From a virus: a DNA stretch of 52,183 nucleotides. A program made the position numbers and the translations under genes. The notes under the pieces are model-generated. The model was given only the letters and a program-made list of their open reading frames with translations. It did no database searches and was not told the DNA's origin. This document shows, in pieces, positions 2,197 to 40,195 of the stretch. The stretch is taken from IMG/VR virus record IMGVR_UViG_3300027805_000020, positions 1 to 52,183 of that record; one strand, 5' to 3'. How positions within the stretch are numbered: position 1 is the stretch's first letter; every line of letters begins with the position of its first letter.

Positions 2197-2817
2197 ATGT
2201 TTAAAAAATACAATATTGACGAAAATAATTTTATTAGCTATGAAATACTAGATAATTTTGTTATAGTAAAATTTATATTTTTTGATACAGTTGATAATTT
2301 AAAAGTTTGTATAAAAAAGTATATAGATTATTTCATGACTTTAAACGTAGATTTTTTAGGATGCTATCCCGGAACATGTAATCCAATTGTTATAGATAGC
2401 ACTATTAATGTATTTTCTTGTTATGAATTAAAATACAGAATTTTTTATGATGGAGAAGAAATAAATAATATACAGAGTTTTATAAAAAAAACTATAAAGC
2501 CATGCACGCAAAAAATTTTATCGATTCCAAATCAAAATATTTCCCAATCTGCTTGCGATGGAGAAATCGGTAGAAATGCTTCAAAAGAAGGTTTTAAGTC
2601 GTGTTGTATTTTTGGTCAACTAAACAAAAAAACAGAAGGTCCGAAAACACCTATAAGGTATTACAAAGTGGACGAAAACGGATTCTTATGTGAGGAATTT
2701 TTAGAAAAACCTAGTGATAATGCATATTACTACAAATCGATAAGACTTAAAGACATGTTCAAATCTCACAAGATACTTTTAGAAAATGGCGTTCCTAAGT
2801 ATTTGCCAAAGGATTAA
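2197..2817 (+). CDS. hypothetical protein in tail gene block
   Basis: Not recognised. The 206-residue start is chosen at the ATG that follows GGAGGT by 11 bases; an in-frame upstream ATG inside the preceding gene has no such site. The protein is acidic/aromatic in its N-terminal half. It has scattered cysteines: C-Y-P-G-T-C near residue 60, then S-A-C and S-C-C-I-F near residues 125-145. It sits between two LF-repeat proteins, 4 bases before the next gene, so it is probably co-expressed with the virion genes. It could be an adaptor or chaperone for the repeat proteins, but nothing in the sequence proves this. Confidence 0.65.
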   Translation: MFKKYNIDENNFISYEILDNFVIVKFIFFDTVDNLKVCIKKYIDYFMTLNVDFLGCYPGTCNPIVIDSTINVFSCYELKYRIFYDGEEINNIQSFIKKTIKPCTQKILSIPNQNISQSACDGEIGRNASKEGFKSCCIFGQLNKKTEGPKTPIRYYKVDENGFLCEEFLEKPSDNAYYYKSIRLKDMFKSHKILLENGVPKYLPKD

Positions 2818-2820
2818 TAA

Positions 2821-4074
2821 ATGCCCAAAATATATACAAAATCTTATCACGGAGCAATTTTTACTGCAAACGCCAGCGGGACCGCACAATCCTCAAGATC
2901 TTATACGGGCAATACATATGATTGCAGTAATAATTTTTATGGCTATGAATTAAAAGTTGCCGGAAACAAATTCTATGTAACATACAAAGATTCCGCCTTT
3001 AAGATAAAGGAAGTATCTGCACATAATTTTGTTCTAACAGACTCTACGATTCATGAATCAACTGATCCTGATTTTATTAACAATATTACTATTTGTAATG
3101 GTATCATATATACAATATTGAATAAAAAAATATACAAAACTAATGGAGACGCATTCGAGTTTGCCGAAGCCGAAGAATTTTCCGAGATTAGGCCGTATAT
3201 TCCGTTTGGACATGTTGTACACGCAATAGATCAGTCTTTGGCAAATCCGCTAATACTTCAAGATATGCTTTTAGTGTATCGCAAATTTGATGTAAAGTAT
3301 GGACTTAACAGCACTAAGACTATAAACAAAATATCCCGAATAGAAGATGAAGTTAAGCTCCAAACCCCAACACTTTTTCTGAAAAACTTTGGATCTATAA
3401 ATAATCTAAATCTATTTTACAAAACGCCCGAACTGCTTGCTAGGCCCGCAACACTTTTTACCGAAGGCGTTGTGTCTACTTCTAACGGATTAAATTTTCA
3501 CATAGAAGTTGGAAATCGCAATGTTCTGCCGTTAAATTTGAAAACTATAGATCCCGACAAACTCTCTAATACATCAACGTTATTTACTTACGGGGCGACT
3601 GTATCGGGGGGCGGATTTAACACCAAAGACACTACCTTATTTTTATCTTCTATAGTCGCAGGCGAATCGGGAAGTGTACCGCTGGTTTTAGTCAGACCAG
3701 ATAAATCAGACGTTTCAGGCACTTTAAGTTTAAACATTGTCAACCAACCAAAAAATATACAAGAAAATTTGAGTATATTTATACAGAACAATCAATTGTC
3801 TCAGTCTGACGACATATCGTTGTTTTGCGTTTCCGTTTCTGGTAATGTTTCAAATCCTATGAATTTGACTTTATTCAGAAAGGGATTAGGAAGTGGACAG
3901 GAAAAAGAAGAGGAATTAGGATTATATATGCATAGCGAAAAAACTTTGAAGGATGTGTTTTTGTATACGGACGGAGTTTCTGGGTCTGGAGATTCTTGCA
4001 CATTGGTTATGCCTAAGTGTCACGAATTACCATCTTCTAATGCAACCCTTAATGTTTTTGGATATTCCGAATAA
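2821..4074 (+). CDS. LF-repeat virion structural protein
   Basis: A 417-residue protein related in style to the first gene of the window. Residues about 1-170 form a non-repetitive head. Residues about 175-417 hold some ten repeats such as P-A-T-L-F-T-E-G and T-S-T-L-F-T-Y-G, ending close to the C-terminus. The start ATG follows AAAGGA by about 7 bases. Its stop overlaps the next ATG (TAATG), so translation is probably coupled. Probably a virion surface or tail-associated protein that assembles from stacked strands; the exact position in the particle is unknown. Confidence 0.7.
   Translation: MPKIYTKSYHGAIFTANASGTAQSSRSYTGNTYDCSNNFYGYELKVAGNKFYVTYKDSAFKIKEVSAHNFVLTDSTIHESTDPDFINNITICNGIIYTILNKKIYKTNGDAFEFAEAEEFSEIRPYIPFGHVVHAIDQSLANPLILQDMLLVYRKFDVKYGLNSTKTINKISRIEDEVKLQTPTLFLKNFGSINNLNLFYKTPELLARPATLFTEGVVSTSNGLNFHIEVGNRNVLPLNLKTIDPDKLSNTSTLFTYGATVSGGGFNTKDTTLFLSSIVAGESGSVPLVLVRPDKSDVSGTLSLNIVNQPKNIQENLSIFIQNNQLSQSDDISLFCVSVSGNVSNPMNLTLFRKGLGSGQEKEEELGLYMHSEKTLKDVFLYTDGVSGSGDSCTLVMPKCHELPSSNATLNVFGYSE
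3360..4060 (+). repeat. LF-type protein repeat region (second copy)
   Basis: Second array of the T-L-F-x-x-G repeat, in a separate gene. The repeats are about 20-25 residues apart and occupy the C-terminal half, whereas in the first gene they lie in the N-terminal third. The two genes therefore share a module in different architectures. Confidence 0.6.
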
Positions 4075-34349: not shown

Positions 34350-34940
34350 TCACTCCGTAGTATTAGTGTTATGATGATCAACAGCAGTCCACTTCTTTTG
34401 TTTCATAATAGACATGACTTCGTCGTAATGATACAATGTATGTTTTTCGTGTCCGTACAGTTCAGTATCCCAACCAACATCTATAGATAGAAGATCGGGG
34501 TCGTCTGGTAGACTGCCGTGACTATGCCCGTAAAGCATTATAGATCCTCTGTGCGACATATTCCATATGCGTTGTGCGTAGTGATGAAGGTAAAAATATG
34601 TATCATGAATTTTTCCTTCCCATACGGGCTTTATCCATTTAAATAGGTGCCTGTGATCATATACATGCTTGTCATGATTGCCCGTAACTAGGAAAATGTT
34701 TTGACAACGAATACTTTTGCGGAACGTTTCAATGTTATGTTTTCCACCGAAAGACCAATCGCCAAGATGGTAAATAATATCATTCTCGCCAGCCTCGTTA
34801 AAAGATTCAACCAATGCTTCATTCATATCGTGGGTACTATTAAAGTTACGATATCCAGAATTCCACGAGCTTACTTTAGGCCCGGCAATATTTGAGTGCC
34901 CGTAATGAGAATCCGAAGTGAAAAATACATTAATTGACAT
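34350..34940 (-). CDS. metallophosphoesterase
   Basis: A 196-residue calcineurin-like phosphoesterase: D10-S-H12 (first metal motif), H-L-G-D-W near 58, T-G-N-H-D near 85 and Y-G-H-S-H near 138. These are all the dinuclear metal ligands expected. It could remove phosphate or a cyclic phosphate from nucleic acid ends or nucleotides. Next to Thg1-like and kinase genes, an RNA 2',3'- or 5'-end function is an attractive guess only. Confidence 0.88.
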   Translation of the reverse strand: MSINVFFTSDSHYGHSNIAGPKVSSWNSGYRNFNSTHDMNEALVESFNEAGENDIIYHLGDWSFGGKHNIETFRKSIRCQNIFLVTGNHDKHVYDHRHLFKWIKPVWEGKIHDTYFYLHHYAQRIWNMSHRGSIMLYGHSHGSLPDDPDLLSIDVGWDTELYGHEKHTLYHYDEVMSIMKQKKWTAVDHHNTNTTE

Positions 34941-35643
34941 TGACTAAATCTCCAAATAAAATTTCAACTCTTTCTTCGTGACTATATTGTGTTAGAGGCA
35001 TTATATCTAGCGGGCAATATGATCTTTTTCCGGTAATTTTATTTCTTAGCTTTTTAGTATAACCACCACGTTTAAAGCGTGCGGGATAATTATTCCAGTT
35101 AACACCTTTATTAATTAGCATATCGCTAAGATCTGAAAAGTTTTTATTATTGCATTCTTTATGCGAATAATAAGTTCTAGCGGCCATTTGAATTGAGTTT
35201 CGTGCTGCATCCATCTCTCGCCAGAGCAAACAATTTGTAGCTTCGGATAAATTTGGCACGGAAAACACACGGCAGTCAAATAGTGCCATTTTTCCTTCGT
35301 TTTTGAAAATGTTATTGAAAGTATAGGTTGCAAAGGATGCAAGAACGGAACATAGCTTTTGTATTTTTCCGCTGAAAAATAATTCTTGCTCCGGCGATTC
35401 TTTGGATAACACGAGTGTTATTTCGTCGCTCTGTGTATATCCTAAAACCGCATCACTAAAATTACAAAGATCATAAGTCAAAGTATCCATTGCTTGTACT
35501 AAACCATCATCATAAGGCTTATTCAAATTTGAAGTAAAACTATGAAAAGCCTTTCCGTCGATACGAACTATGATCGGGCAATTAGGCATTGCCTGCATAC
35601 CGTAAGCCTTTTCGTAATCTTTCATTCTGTCGCCGATTTCCAT
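34930..35643 (-). CDS. Thg1-like 3'-5' nucleotidyltransferase
   Basis: A 237-residue protein of the tRNA-His guanylyltransferase family. R-I-D-G-K-A-F-H-S-F at 27-36 (metal Asp29) and Y-T-Q-S-D-E-I at 69-75 are the signature sites; N-C-L-L-W-R near residue 140 is also typical. Thg1-like proteins add nucleotides to the 5' end of RNA in the 3'-5' direction and repair truncated tRNAs. Bacterial and phage members are usually repair types. AGGAG lies upstream. This gene, a P-loop kinase and a phosphoesterase lie close together. Confidence 0.93.
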   Translation of the reverse strand: MEIGDRMKDYEKAYGMQAMPNCPIIVRIDGKAFHSFTSNLNKPYDDGLVQAMDTLTYDLCNFSDAVLGYTQSDEITLVLSKESPEQELFFSGKIQKLCSVLASFATYTFNNIFKNEGKMALFDCRVFSVPNLSEATNCLLWREMDAARNSIQMAARTYYSHKECNNKNFSDLSDMLINKGVNWNNYPARFKRGGYTKKLRNKITGKRSYCPLDIMPLTQYSHEERVEILFGDLVNVN

Positions 35644-35646
35644 TGT

Positions 35647-35889
35647 TTATATCTCCTGAACTGACAAGACACCCAGCGGCGGACAACAACCGCAAGGCTC
35701 TTGAGGCTGCTTAATCTGATGCAGTCTTTCAAGCCGCTCTAGCCGTTCACTGTCGTCCTTCTGCCAAGACCATACAATCAGCGACAGGCTCAAAACTGCG
35801 ATGGTTAAGATACATGAAAACACGAAGAGAAATGTGCTTTGCGACTGTAAGTCTTCGCGATATGATTCAATCCTTGCGATTTCGTTCAT
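35647..35889 (-). CDS. small single-pass membrane protein
   Basis: An 80-residue protein; GGGAG 8 bases before the ATG favours this start over a much longer in-frame version. One hydrophobic helix lies at about 19-42 (F-L-F-V-F-S-C-I-L-T), then a charged stretch with E-R-L-E-R-L repeats (short coiled coil) and a terminal C-G-C-C. Topology resembles small envelope or lysis-related proteins, but the function is unknown. Confidence 0.65.
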   Translation of the reverse strand: MNEIARIESYREDLQSQSTFLFVFSCILTIAVLSLSLIVWSWQKDDSERLERLERLHQIKQPQEPCGCCPPLGVLSVQEI

Positions 35890-35900
35890 TACCACACTCC

Positions 35901-36002
35901 CTAGTAAGACCGCATCGAAGTAAAACCGGCGCATATCATCATGAGGATGCAGACGAAACACATAAACGCAATAAAGAGCCACTCACATATTTTTTCAACC
36001 AT
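35901..36002 (-). CDS. very small membrane peptide
   Basis: A 33-residue peptide with one hydrophobic helix (residues about 9-26, Cys- and Met-rich). The ATG stands one base after the stop of the preceding gene (TAA-C-ATG), and its stop is 11 bases before the next start. G-rich sequence upstream could bind the ribosome. It fits the run of small membrane proteins here; being so short, it needs protein evidence. Confidence 0.5.
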   Translation of the reverse strand: MVEKICEWLFIAFMCFVCILMMICAGFTSMRSY

Positions 36003-36003
36003 G

Positions 36004-36198
36004 TTACCACGCCCCCAAATAAATTATTAAATCTACGAACTTCCACATTGCCAAAATGGGAATTGAGATGACTGTGAACCATAAAAGTAATCCAAAAATC
36101 CATATTAAAAAATTACATGCGATTTCCATTAGTTTTCCACCACTGTCCTTTCTTCGTCGTCTTTCAGCAAATGCTGCTTCAAGTATGTCGCCAATCAT
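36004..36198 (-). CDS. small membrane protein
   Basis: A 64-residue protein, first gene after the promoter at 36.2 kb, with the strong Shine-Dalgarno GAGAGGGG before the ATG. Charged N-terminus (E-R-R-R-R-K), then two hydrophobic segments (about 29-43 and 45-62). Function unknown. Confidence 0.65.
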   Translation of the reverse strand: MIGDILEAAFAERRRRKDSGGKLMEIACNFLIWIFGLLLWFTVISIPILAMWKFVDLIIYLGAW

Positions 36199-37258: not shown

Positions 37259-37627
37259 TTAGTAATTTGAATTGTATAAATTGTTTAGTTGTAGTTTTTG
37301 TTCCTCAGTAGGCTCTGAGTGCTGTTCAAATACTGATATCAAAAATGTCATTAAGTTTTTATAATATTCAGAAAAATCTTTTTTGTATAAAAATACATGA
37401 ATTGTATAATAATTAGAGCCAAAAACTAAATTTAAGCTAGGGCCATCGCACTGATCGCAGTATAAGTTAACAAAAAATACATCTTTAATTTGTAATATAT
37501 TTCGAATTGCAACACACATGCCCGCGAGAAATAACTTTATATCCTCAGAAGCTTCTCCGTTACACTGTATTTCCCGCATAACGAGCGTTGAATCTTGAAA
37601 AAATATGTACGACTTAGGCTTTTTCAT
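37259..37627 (-). CDS. hypothetical protein
   Basis: A 122-residue protein, not recognised. Hydrophobic strands alternate with charged turns; Y-C-D-Q-C-D is the only Cys cluster. It overlaps the 3' end of the nadV C-terminal gene by 14 bases, so it is co-expressed with NAD salvage and the vWA protein. Confidence 0.6.
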   Translation of the reverse strand: MKKPKSYIFFQDSTLVMREIQCNGEASEDIKLFLAGMCVAIRNILQIKDVFFVNLYCDQCDGPSLNLVFGSNYYTIHVFLYKKDFSEYYKNLMTFLISVFEQHSEPTEEQKLQLNNLYNSNY

Positions 37628-38426
37628 TTTCTAACCTTTGTTTAATAGCGGCAAATGATTCTACTATGTAATTTCCATTGCAGAAAACTGTAGTAAGTAA
37701 CGATTCGTCGCGTTCTTCTTCCTCGGTACGTCTATCCTTTAGGTAAAGCTTGCCCTTTTCGTCTCTCTTGACGCATAATAGCCCGCGAGCAGATTTCTTG
37801 GTTCCATCGTCAGTTATGGGATCTTTAAAAATCTCACGCTTTTCAAGAACTTCATTTTCCATAACTTCGCAGTATGTACTCTTAACTGCGATACCTAATG
37901 TATCTCTAGTATTATAGTTATATGTGTAACTACCGATTCCAAATACTACATTAGTGCTAGCAAAGCCTTTAGCTTCAAGTCTTGCACAAATTCGCTCGGC
38001 CCTATCAAGAGTAATGCTGTCGCCGTAGATAACTCCAATGTGAGGGTCTAGCACCTTATAACCTTTTTCGTTTACAGTTCCGCCGAATACGCCCCAAAGA
38101 AGTTCCACAACACCCTTGGCTTCGTTATCATTTGGTTTAACACTGTCTCTGTACCCATTATAACCTAAAGACGACCACTCTTTACCACAAAGGATATCTA
38201 CAGGGTCTCCGCTGTCAGGTCTAATCACCAGCTTGCCATTGCGAGCCATGATTTTATCTTTAAGCTGCGGCAATATTTCCGTACAAATCTTAAAAAGATC
38301 AAAAGTATCACTAACTAATGATAGTATACCATCAGGGAATTGTTCTAATAGTCTAGTATAAGAAGCTAATTCGTTAGTTTTTACAATTTTGACTTTTCTT
38401 TTTCTTTTTTCAATAACTGTTTTCAT
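37614..38426 (-). CDS. nadV: nicotinamide phosphoribosyltransferase, C-terminal half
   Basis: A 270-residue C-terminal part of NAMPT. V-S-D-T-F-D-L-F near 38-45 and V-I-R-P-D-S-G-D-P near 70-78 are the substrate and phosphate-binding motifs; Y-G-D-S-I-T-L-D near 150 is also typical. The start ATG overlaps the stop of the homing endonuclease (ATGA), so it can be translated by coupling. The frame is the same as in the N-terminal half, and joining both at their shared ATG recreates a continuous NAMPT. A separate GTG start three codons earlier is possible. NAMPT makes NMN from nicotinamide and PRPP. Confidence 0.9.
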   Translation of the reverse strand: MKTVIEKRKRKVKIVKTNELASYTRLLEQFPDGILSLVSDTFDLFKICTEILPQLKDKIMARNGKLVIRPDSGDPVDILCGKEWSSLGYNGYRDSVKPNDNEAKGVVELLWGVFGGTVNEKGYKVLDPHIGVIYGDSITLDRAERICARLEAKGFASTNVVFGIGSYTYNYNTRDTLGIAVKSTYCEVMENEVLEKREIFKDPITDDGTKKSARGLLCVKRDEKGKLYLKDRRTEEEERDESLLTTVFCNGNYIVESFAAIKQRLENEKA

Positions 38427-39172
38427 ATTTTCCACTTTCTTTCTAGTGATGGTATTTTATTACTAATAATAAAATCTTTTAAAAATTTATATCTATTTAT
38501 TCCATGTAAACAAACTTGTGTATTTTTTCTTTTATTGTAAGAAACTGTAAATTTTAATATTGAAAAATCATCTACTAATTTATTACAAAAATTATTTAAT
38601 ACATTAAACCAGTTTTCGTGAACTATTATTCTTATAGATTGGAATGATCCTTTTCTATAAGAAATAGAGCCGTCTCCATCTATAAATCCAATTAAAAAAG
38701 CAATTCTTTCTTCTTTATTTTGAAGAAAATCAAAATTATCTGGTGGATTGTATGTCTTTTTTTTCTTAATTCCTAGTTTATGCTTTAACTTTTCAGAGTT
38801 AATAATATCCATATTAGTTAGTCTAACCATATTTTTGCTTCGCAGATATTGTATATCTTTGTCTATATAATTAGATATTTTTAATAAATGTTTTTTATCT
38901 TGTTCATGCAGTTGAATAACTAACTCTCCTCTATCTGAAATATGACCATCTGATAAAATGAAGCCCCACCAATAACAATTAAATAGTGTATTTGGTAATA
39001 GTAAAGAAATTTTTGAATTTCTAAGTTTTTTTCTACATAATCCAAGTTTTTTAGCTTTATCTTTTATTGATGACCAGCTATGAGGATTTAACAATGTTAA
39101 TAACTCATCTTTGCTACTCTGATGATATTGATCTTTTAAAATCTGCATTTCTTGTTCGGTGTATTTTTTCAT
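38423..39172 (-). CDS. LAGLIDADG homing endonuclease inserted in nadV
   Basis: A 249-residue homing endonuclease with two LAGLIDADG-type motifs, W-G-F-I-L-S-D-G-H-I near 69-78 and L-I-G-F-I-D-G-D-G-S-I near 160, so it can act as a monomer. The N-terminal 50 residues (S-W-S-S-I-K-D-K-A-K-K-L-G-L) are a small helix-turn-helix of the kind seen in such enzymes. AAGGA lies before the ATG. Only about 50 bases of the insert are non-coding, too few for a group I intron core. It splits the NAMPT gene in two. Confidence 0.88.
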   Translation of the reverse strand: MKKYTEQEMQILKDQYHQSSKDELLTLLNPHSWSSIKDKAKKLGLCRKKLRNSKISLLLPNTLFNCYWWGFILSDGHISDRGELVIQLHEQDKKHLLKISNYIDKDIQYLRSKNMVRLTNMDIINSEKLKHKLGIKKKKTYNPPDNFDFLQNKEERIAFLIGFIDGDGSISYRKGSFQSIRIIVHENWFNVLNNFCNKLVDDFSILKFTVSYNKRKNTQVCLHGINRYKFLKDFIISNKIPSLERKWKI

Positions 39173-39218
39173 TAGTTTTTCCTTAAATTTATAATACACC
39201 AGAAATCAAAACATAATG

Positions 39219-40052
39219 TTACATAAATATTTCTTTTTCTGAAATTTTTTCTCCAGAATCATTATAAATTACTTCTACAGAGTATTCTACTTCTATTTCT
39301 TCTTCGTAATAATCAGCATTAGCACACATAATTGAATGCTCCGAAGCCGGTACGCTAGAACCAACTAATTCTTCTTCGATGTTTGCATCGTAATATTCCT
39401 CCAGCATTAATACCGCAGGAATAGTATCAGTGCCCGTAAACGATAGTAAGTGTCCAGCCTGATTAAGTGTAGACTCCATACTGCTTCGGCCACGCATAGC
39501 AAAATCGTGTCCTTGCCATTGCACGAAAGATGGATCGCCGGTTTTTTCGGCCCACTTATTTAGTAGCTTGCGGTACATATGGGCAATAGTTGCTACTGTT
39601 GTCATATCCCAAATAACCGTTGACATTTGAGTTTCTAGAAAGTTGACAAGCCAAGCAAAGTCCGGGTGAGTATTTGTAATAGTAAAAAAAGGAACTTTCT
39701 CGGGAACAAGAGTGCCCTCGGGCAATGCCTTAATTTCTATTGGTAGATATTGAAGCTTATACAGCTTTTCCATGTGTTCAGTGTCTATATCAATAAAACT
39801 AAAGTGCTTATGAAAACGCTTGTACTCGGTCAAAACTTCTTCCAGCGGCCTATCGAAGAAATTAGTTCTCCATTGCCTGACAAGATATTCTTGAATGTAA
39901 TATTGTAGCCCGAACCATACTGCTCTATCACAACCTAAACGCTTAAAGCTTCTAGGAGTCATGTTGCTGCTGAGCTTAATCATGCCCTTGGGGTACATCC
40001 AAGGATGGAATTGTTTATAGCTGTCGGACATCAAAATTGGTAAAATTTTCAT
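39219..40052 (-). CDS. nadV: nicotinamide phosphoribosyltransferase, N-terminal half
   Basis: A 277-residue N-terminal part of NAMPT: I-L-M-S-D-S-Y-K at the start, W-Q-G-H-D-F-A-M-R-G-R-S-S near 180-192 and S-V-P-A-S-E-H-S near 237. The last 30 residues run into an acidic strand pair and then stop one codon after ATG, exactly where the homing endonuclease insert begins. GAGG lies 7 bases before the chosen ATG; an upstream in-frame ATG lacks one. Active-site residues are divided between the two halves, so activity requires both polypeptides to assemble. Confidence 0.9.
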   Translation of the reverse strand: MKILPILMSDSYKQFHPWMYPKGMIKLSSNMTPRSFKRLGCDRAVWFGLQYYIQEYLVRQWRTNFFDRPLEEVLTEYKRFHKHFSFIDIDTEHMEKLYKLQYLPIEIKALPEGTLVPEKVPFFTITNTHPDFAWLVNFLETQMSTVIWDMTTVATIAHMYRKLLNKWAEKTGDPSFVQWQGHDFAMRGRSSMESTLNQAGHLLSFTGTDTIPAVLMLEEYYDANIEEELVGSSVPASEHSIMCANADYYEEEIEVEYSVEVIYNDSGEKISEKEIFM

Positions 40053-40167: not shown

Positions 40168-40195
40168 ATTATATCACAAAAAATCGATCTGTCAA
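40168..40195 (-). promoter_or_regulatory. consensus sigma-70 promoter for the nadV operon
   Basis: On the minus strand TTGACA (40195-40190), 16-base spacer, TATAAT (40173-40168): twelve of twelve consensus bases. The first downstream gene is nadV, about 110 bases away. The leader between is about 105 bases long and holds no clear riboswitch or hairpin. The sequence AATTTTGCAAAATT lies just upstream of the -35 (40210-40223), a possible operator. Confidence 0.87.

What the first reader, a model, noticed from the sequence alone, without database searches (positions are those of the whole stretch)
37614..40052. NAMPT gene cleanly split by a LAGLIDADG endonuclease into two coupled genes
The two nadV halves are in the same frame. 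The insert runs from just after one ATG to a second ATG, is 798 bases (a multiple of 3), and joining at the ATG restores a continuous NAMPT. The endonuclease has its own start, and its stop overlaps the start of the C-terminal half (ATGA). Active-site residues are split between halves (the HDFAMRG and PASEHS motifs in one; RPDSGDP in the other), so this may be a working two-piece NAMPT. The insert is too short outside the ORF for a group I intron core.
Basis: partly seen in the sequence, partly recalled or inferred. Interest (0 to 1): 0.85.

Follow-up and report, generated by a model that had tools for sequence, protein, structure and literature searches.

The report
Anti-defence enzyme split by mobile endonuclease
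In this phage, a selfish DNA-cutting gene sits inside the gene for an enzyme that probably rebuilds NAD+ after bacterial defences destroy it; both halves stay open and each carries an added tail that may help them rejoin as a two-piece enzyme, as is known for one other phage enzyme.

Summary
The split is real: N-half (39219-40052), a LAGLIDADG endonuclease (38423-39172) and C-half (37614-38426), all on the minus strand. Two corrections. (1) The split is not clean. About 1.06 kb (~38265-39326, ~25% GC against 41% in the flanks) is foreign. It adds an acidic 31-residue tail to the N-half and a basic 17-residue head to the C-half; the 73 intact relatives checked lack both. (2) The gene is most likely Namat (NAD+ rebuilding, pathway NARP1), not plain NAMPT: it carries the Namat signature GSYTYNYNTRD, and the near-identical 169-kb relative also has an Adps-like gene. 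The cassette is almost identical in two otherwise diverged phages (5/191 synonymous differences against 32/149 and 54/139 in the flanks), so it moved recently as a unit. No intron core is found; the same search finds one around a cousin endonuclease elsewhere in this gene. An unrelated HNH-type endonuclease splits the same loop in another phage. Best reading: a genes-in-pieces enzyme like Aeh1 NrdA/MobE, whose tails are also oppositely charged. Assembly by the tails and enzyme activity are inferred, not shown. New variant of a known kind.

The parts
40168..40195 (-). promoter-like site TTGACA-16-TATAAT with TG, upstream of the N-half
   Evidence: 12 of 12 consensus match; a consensus match only
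39219..40052 (-). N-terminal half of the Namat/NAMPT-like gene, 277 aa plus stop; holds D10, Y12, F184, R187, D209 and the catalytic His239 (PASEHS)
   Evidence: model matches Namat 9w5x at TM 0.82
39222..39314 (-). acidic N-half tail DYYEEEIEVEYSVEVIYNDSGEKISEKEIFM, net about -9, absent from intact relatives
   Evidence: 25.7% GC; coding-like 3-periodicity
39173..39218 (-). 46-nt gap with AAGGA ahead of the endonuclease start
38423..39172 (-). LAGLIDADG homing endonuclease, 249 aa, with two motifs (FILSDGHI, LIGFIDGDGSI)
   Evidence: PF14528 3e-5, above cut-off; PHROG 4645; catalytic Asp columns invariant in 6 homologues
37614..38426 (-). C-terminal half, 270 aa; holds R69, D71, D136 and the Namat motif
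   Evidence: PF04095 2.8e-28
38376..38426 (-). basic C-half head MKTVIEKRKRKVKIVKT, net +7, absent from intact relatives; its ATG overlaps the endonuclease TGA
38265..39326 (-). whole foreign cassette: last ~35 codons of the N-half, gap, endonuclease, first ~54 codons of the C-half (17-residue head plus ~37 codons of foreign exon); boundaries approximate
   Evidence: identity and GC step; little synonymous divergence between window and L001 here against dS 0.25-0.55 in the flanks
37902..37934 (-). GSYTYNYNTRD, the Namat selectivity-clamp helix signature
   Evidence: against the consensus in PMC12774641

Best explanation
A LAGLIDADG homing endonuclease gene, without any intron, entered the loop just after the catalytic histidine of a phage Namat gene (nicotinamide ADP-ribose transferase of the NAD+ rebuilding pathway NARP1) by homing, and brought part of another phage's exon with it (supported by the sequence comparison). 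The locus now encodes three proteins on one strand: the N-half with an acidic tail, the endonuclease, and the C-half with a basic head whose start overlaps the endonuclease stop, so it is probably translated by coupling (inferred). Neither half holds a whole active site. The halves most likely assemble into one working enzyme without splicing, helped by the oppositely charged tails, as in the Aeh1 NrdA-a/NrdA-b pair (inferred). The endonuclease most likely cuts intact alleles at this conserved site and is copied in together with both tails (mobility follows from the pattern of divergence; cutting itself was not tested).
For: Same split in L009 (identical cassette) and L001 (endonuclease 98%); intact in L002-L005 and in the other relatives checked. 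Window against L001, synonymous differences: 5/191 in the cassette, 32/149 in the N flank (Fisher 2e-8) and 54/139 in the C flank (3e-18); the C flank of L001 is L005-like, and that of the window lacks the long loop insert which L001 and L005 share. GC 24-27% in the cassette, 41% outside. Tail and head are open in their own frame and have stops in the other two, with coding-like periodicity. Among 58 window ORFs the tail is the most acidic C-terminus and the head the most basic N-terminus. Of 20 NAD-contacting residues of SPbetaL1 Namat 16 are identical; 8 of the 20 positions fall in the N-half and 12 in the C-half. The N-half model alone matches NAMPT (TM 0.82), the C-half model alone mispacks (TM 0.50, rmsd 18). 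One copy per genome. No intron core, with matched positive controls (against 78, 88). Precedent Aeh1: the split nrdA is fully functional (PMC2988022); its tails are +6 in 33 and -10 in 30 residues, with the same GC dip. Independent split of the same loop by an HNH/endonuclease VII-like gene in L156.
Against: No transcript, protein or activity data. The purifying selection on the halves (dN/dS 0.13 and 0.19, window against L001) may date from before the split, because the flanks are older than the insertion. C-half dN/dS against L002 is higher (0.32). Tails are modelled with low confidence and show no sequence similarity to the Aeh1 or L156 tails; the beta-strand signal in the N-tail is only marginal (p 0.058), and the L156 tails are only weakly charged (-4 and +1). 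The donor was not found.
Confidence: 0.66

Rival explanations
1. The endonuclease simply broke the gene: the halves are a dying pseudogene that persists because homing is recent.
For: Cassette spread is recent; the window N-half has unusual changes Y17P, K18W, Y28S against L009.
Against: No frameshift or stop in either half in three contigs; catalytic residues kept; the C-half start overlaps the endonuclease stop; coding-like tails on both sides; a second lineage keeps a split at the same loop while also having a group I intron in the same gene.
Confidence: 0.2
2. The insert is an intron removed from the RNA, as in L142, and the tails are intron sequence read through.
For: The same endonuclease family sits in a true group I intron elsewhere in this gene (L142). 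Deleting tail, endonuclease and head would give a connector of about native length.
Against: No RF00028 match at E up to 10 in 1.1-1.7 kb around the insert, under settings that give 78.9 and 59.9 bits in L142 and L156; only about 140 nt before and 51 nt after the endonuclease, at 25% GC, with ordinary folding energy (z -0.25; the true intron in L142 also has only z -0.63, so folding energy is weak evidence); tail and head look coding.
Confidence: 0.06
3. Protein splicing: a fractured gene with a split intein, halves joined after translation.
For: Fractured genes with split inteins and free endonucleases are known (Dassa et al. 2009, cited in PMC3653736).
Against: Tail (31 aa) and head (17 aa) are short and lack, by eye, the intein end blocks; the residues before the native C-part are K-T, not the usual H-N; no intein family hit.
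Confidence: 0.03
4. Ribosome bypassing or readthrough joins the halves in one polypeptide.
For: Bypassing is known in T4 gene 60, beside a MobA insertion (own knowledge); the halves are in the same frame.
Against: The gap would be about 800 nt and holds a whole gene; the joint protein would still carry the 46 extra residues.
Confidence: 0.02

Closest known systems
Aeh1 NrdA-a / MobE / NrdA-b (genes-in-pieces ribonucleotide reductase)
   Same: Free-standing endonuclease splits an enzyme gene with no intron; 46-nt gap before the endonuclease; endonuclease overlaps the second half (14 nt there, 4 nt here); extra tails on both halves with opposite charge; GC dip in tails and endonuclease
   Different: HNH MobE and NrdA there, LAGLIDADG and Namat here; charge order reversed; no tail similarity; activity shown there, untested here; here the tails have evidently moved with the endonuclease
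L156/L157: Namat/NAMPT-like gene split by an HNH/endonuclease VII-like gene
   Same: Same loop, tail of about 30 residues, no intron core at that site
   Different: Unrelated endonuclease; TAG read as sense; weakly charged tails; second interruption by a group I intron
L142: group I intron with the same LAGLIDADG family in this gene
   Same: Endonuclease 36% identical, same kind of target gene
   Different: Other site (DTFG/FAMKATY) and a true intron (RF00028 78.9 bits)
SPbetaL1 Namat (9w5x, 9w5w)
   Same: 53% identity over the N-half and 42-44% over the C-half, GS..TRD signature
   Different: One polypeptide there; Adps is next door there, about 20 kb away in the relative G001 here

Membership tests
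Genes-in-pieces made by a free-standing homing endonuclease (Aeh1 nrdA type) | Intact in close relatives, interrupted by an endonuclease gene | tested here: met
Genes-in-pieces made by a free-standing homing endonuclease (Aeh1 nrdA type) | No intron or intein around the endonuclease | tested here: met
   intron: with positive controls 78, 88; intein: by eye and Pfam
Genes-in-pieces made by a free-standing homing endonuclease (Aeh1 nrdA type) | Both halves assemble into an active enzyme | not testable with these tools
   needs co-expression
LAGLIDADG homing endonuclease | Two LAGLIDADG motifs with catalytic acids | tested here: met
   PF14528 above cut-off; D75 and D165/D167 invariant in alignment A3
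LAGLIDADG homing endonuclease | Site-specific cutting and homing | tested here: inconclusive
   mobility inferred from divergence; cutting not testable
Namat (NARP1) | GSX(T/S)X(Q/N)X(N/V)TRD clamp helix | tested here: met
   GSYTYNYNTRD (consensus in PMC12774641)
Namat (NARP1) | Adps partner in the genome | tested here: inconclusive
   Adps-like gene in the relative G001 with the identical cassette (27% to SPbetaL1 Adps, E 5e-15; PF00156 above cut-off); none found inside the 52-kb window
Namat (NARP1) | Uses ADPR-PP to make NAD+ | not testable with these tools
   needs an enzyme assay
Group I intron | Catalytic core (RF00028) | tested here: not met
   controls 78, 88
Split-intein fractured gene | Intein end blocks on tail and head | tested here: not met
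   by eye on tail and head; no intein Pfam hit

The most novel reading that the evidence does not exclude
The mobile unit is not just the endonuclease: it includes a coding tail on each side that docks the two halves of the host protein, so the element carries its own repair for the gene it breaks. Such docking tails have arisen independently at least in Aeh1 NrdA and here, and possibly in L156, and the NAD+ anti-defence pathway NARP1 is a preferred home of this endonuclease family.
Probability: 0.35. Interest if true: 0.8.

Novelty: new variant of a known kind. Interest (0 to 1): 0.6.

Why it matters
Few endonuclease-split phage enzymes have been studied, with Aeh1 NrdA the best known; how the pieces assemble was called a fascinating question in 2010 (PMC2988022). 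This case gives a second protein, a second endonuclease class, intact near relatives for direct comparison, and a 1-kb cassette whose tails move with the endonuclease. The target is probably an anti-defence enzyme, so assembly of the pieces could be read out as NAD+ levels or protection of cells, and the same loop is split independently in another phage.

Tried and rejected
Group I intron: rejected; whole-window and 25-kb scans are not enough (one search missed the L142 intron that one search found), so only the short-stretch scans count. Folding energy as intron evidence: uninformative. Donor gene with a long connector: not found in phages, viral contigs or genomes (the three matches are chance). 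Homology of the tails among window, L156, Aeh1 and long-loop intact genes: none detected. Split copies in known phages: none seen in a spread sample of 60 of 1936 records, which is no proof of absence. A joint model of both halves could not be run (only unchanged window or locus proteins allowed, two jobs). No paper in the library links NARP1 or split NAMPT with homing endonucleases.

Full report
What is there. On the minus strand the window carries, in order, an N-terminal NAMPT-like half (39219-40052, 277 aa), a 46-nt gap, a LAGLIDADG endonuclease (38423-39172, 249 aa) and a C-terminal half (37614-38426, 270 aa) whose ATG overlaps the endonuclease TGA. A 12-of-12 promoter-like site lies about 115 nt upstream of the N-half, and no terminator-like site is found on this strand in the region scanned. 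The halves hit one family in adjoining regions.

What is not right is 'clean'. The nearest intact relatives (L002, L003, L004, L005; N-half 86-90% identical) run EHSIQTAYGKENEIDGFSRILDIFPEG (L002, L005) or a similar stretch through the split site. The window runs EHSIMCANA, then DYYEEEIEVEYSVEVIYNDSGEKISEKEIFM and a stop, then the endonuclease, then MKTVIEKRKRKVKIVKT and NELASYTRLLEQFPDG. Joined, this is 46 columns longer than the relatives at this place. None of 73 distinct other viral-contig homologues has this tail or head; one (L082) has a long unrelated loop here, so the loop tolerates insertions.

The cassette is foreign and moved as a unit. DNA identity to L002 and L005 drops to 52-67% between about codon 243 of the N-half and codon 54 of the C-half, and is mostly above 85% outside except at the variable loop. 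GC is 25.7% in the tail region, 24.1% in the endonuclease, 27.0% in the head and adjoining exon, and 41% on both sides. Between the window and L001 the endonuclease, tail and head together show 5 synonymous differences in 191 sites, against 32/149 in the N flank and 54/139 in the C flank (Fisher 2e-8 and 3e-18). Downstream, L001 shares with L005 a 41-residue loop insert that the window and L002 lack. This is the pattern expected from homing with co-conversion into two different backgrounds. The donor was not found.

Not an intron. Scans of 1.1-1.7 kb around the insert at E up to 10 find no group I core. The same kind of scan finds RF00028 at 78.9 bits in L142 and 59.9 bits in L156, where a cousin endonuclease lies at another site of the same gene. 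These controls matter, because a scan of longer stretches missed the L142 intron. Tail and head are open in their own frame only and have coding-like periodicity. Intein end blocks are not seen.

Which enzyme. The best solved relative is Namat of phage SPbetaL1 (9w5x). Namat with Adps forms NARP1, which rebuilds NAD+ from the products of NAD+-depleting defences, and is told from NAMPT by GSX(T/S)X(Q/N)X(N/V)TRD (PMC12774641). The window C-half reads GSYTYNYNTRD, and 16 of 20 NAD-contacting residues are identical. The 169-kb relative G001, with the identical cassette, has an Adps-like gene about 20 kb away and no NMN adenylyltransferase family hit. So the gene is most likely Namat; the reaction itself is untested. 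It is the only copy found in these genomes. The active-site residues fall in both halves, so neither should work alone. The C-half model alone mispacks while the N-half alone matches NAMPT, in line with two pieces that need each other.

How it probably works. The closest precedent is Aeh1 nrdA, split by MobE, whose enzyme is fully functional (PMC2988022); a paper on its assembly by interaction domains derived from the mobile element is known here by title only (reference in PMC3267527). I read the Aeh1 sequence: 46-nt gap, overlap of MobE with the second half, GC dip, a basic NrdA-a tail (+6 in 33) and an acidic NrdA-b head (-10 in 30). The window has the same layout with the charges swapped (-9 and +7), the extreme values among its 58 ORFs. 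The tails are not similar in sequence, so this is likeness of design, not shown descent. That the tails dock the halves is an inference.

A wider pattern. A search with the endonuclease family gave 80 loci. Eleven have NAMPT/Namat or NAPRT genes beside or around the endonuclease: inside as here (L140, L141), in group I introns at another site (L142, L156, L157, probably L150), just downstream (L145, L148), upstream on the other strand (L159, L163), or beside NadE and NAPRT (L146); three more lie beside Prs or Prs/Adps-like genes (L143, L144, L171). Some of these loci are near duplicates, so the count is not one of independent events. In L104 (the same place as L143) the endonuclease overlaps an Adps-like gene by 12 bp. 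In L156/L157 the same loop as in the window is split by an unrelated HNH/endonuclease VII-like gene, again with a 30-residue tail and no intron core, while relatives L224-L226 are intact there. The loop just after the catalytic histidine is thus a repeated target.

Verdict. A real genes-in-pieces locus, a new variant of a known kind. Shown by sequence: the split, the foreign cassette with its two coding tails and its recent spread, the lack of a detectable intron, the Namat signature. Inferred: function of the two-piece enzyme, docking by the tails, translational coupling, cutting by the endonuclease.

Noticed in passing
L156/L157:1372-2016: The endonuclease ORF is open only if TAG is read as Gln (seven codons), suggesting a phage with a code-15-like stop reassignment.
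   Followed up: partly
L142:2716-2936, L156:2555-2769, L150 around 2536-2800: Group I introns at DTFG/FAMKATY of the Namat/NAMPT gene with the same LAGLIDADG family; L150 judged by eye only.
   Followed up: partly
L104:1438-2268 and 2257-3072: A cousin endonuclease (38% identical in the alignment) overlaps the end of an Adps-like gene by 12 bp.
   Followed up: partly
window 39906-40007 (codons 16-49 of the N-half): The only differences between the window and L009 in the split gene cluster here (11 codons, with YK to PW and Y28S), as if a short recombined patch.
   Followed up: no
window about 35648-36193: About 546 bp present in the window are missing from the otherwise near-identical record G001.
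   Followed up: no
L065 and L073: NAMPT-like reading frames of 762 and 624 aa, longer than usual; possible fusions.
   Followed up: no
window 34930-35643: ORF that looks by eye like a Thg1-type tRNA(His) guanylyltransferase.
   Followed up: no
PHROG 16547 and PHROG 15800: Phage families of 315 and 322 positions that seem to cover only the N- or C-part of this enzyme, so other split copies may exist among known phages.
   Followed up: no
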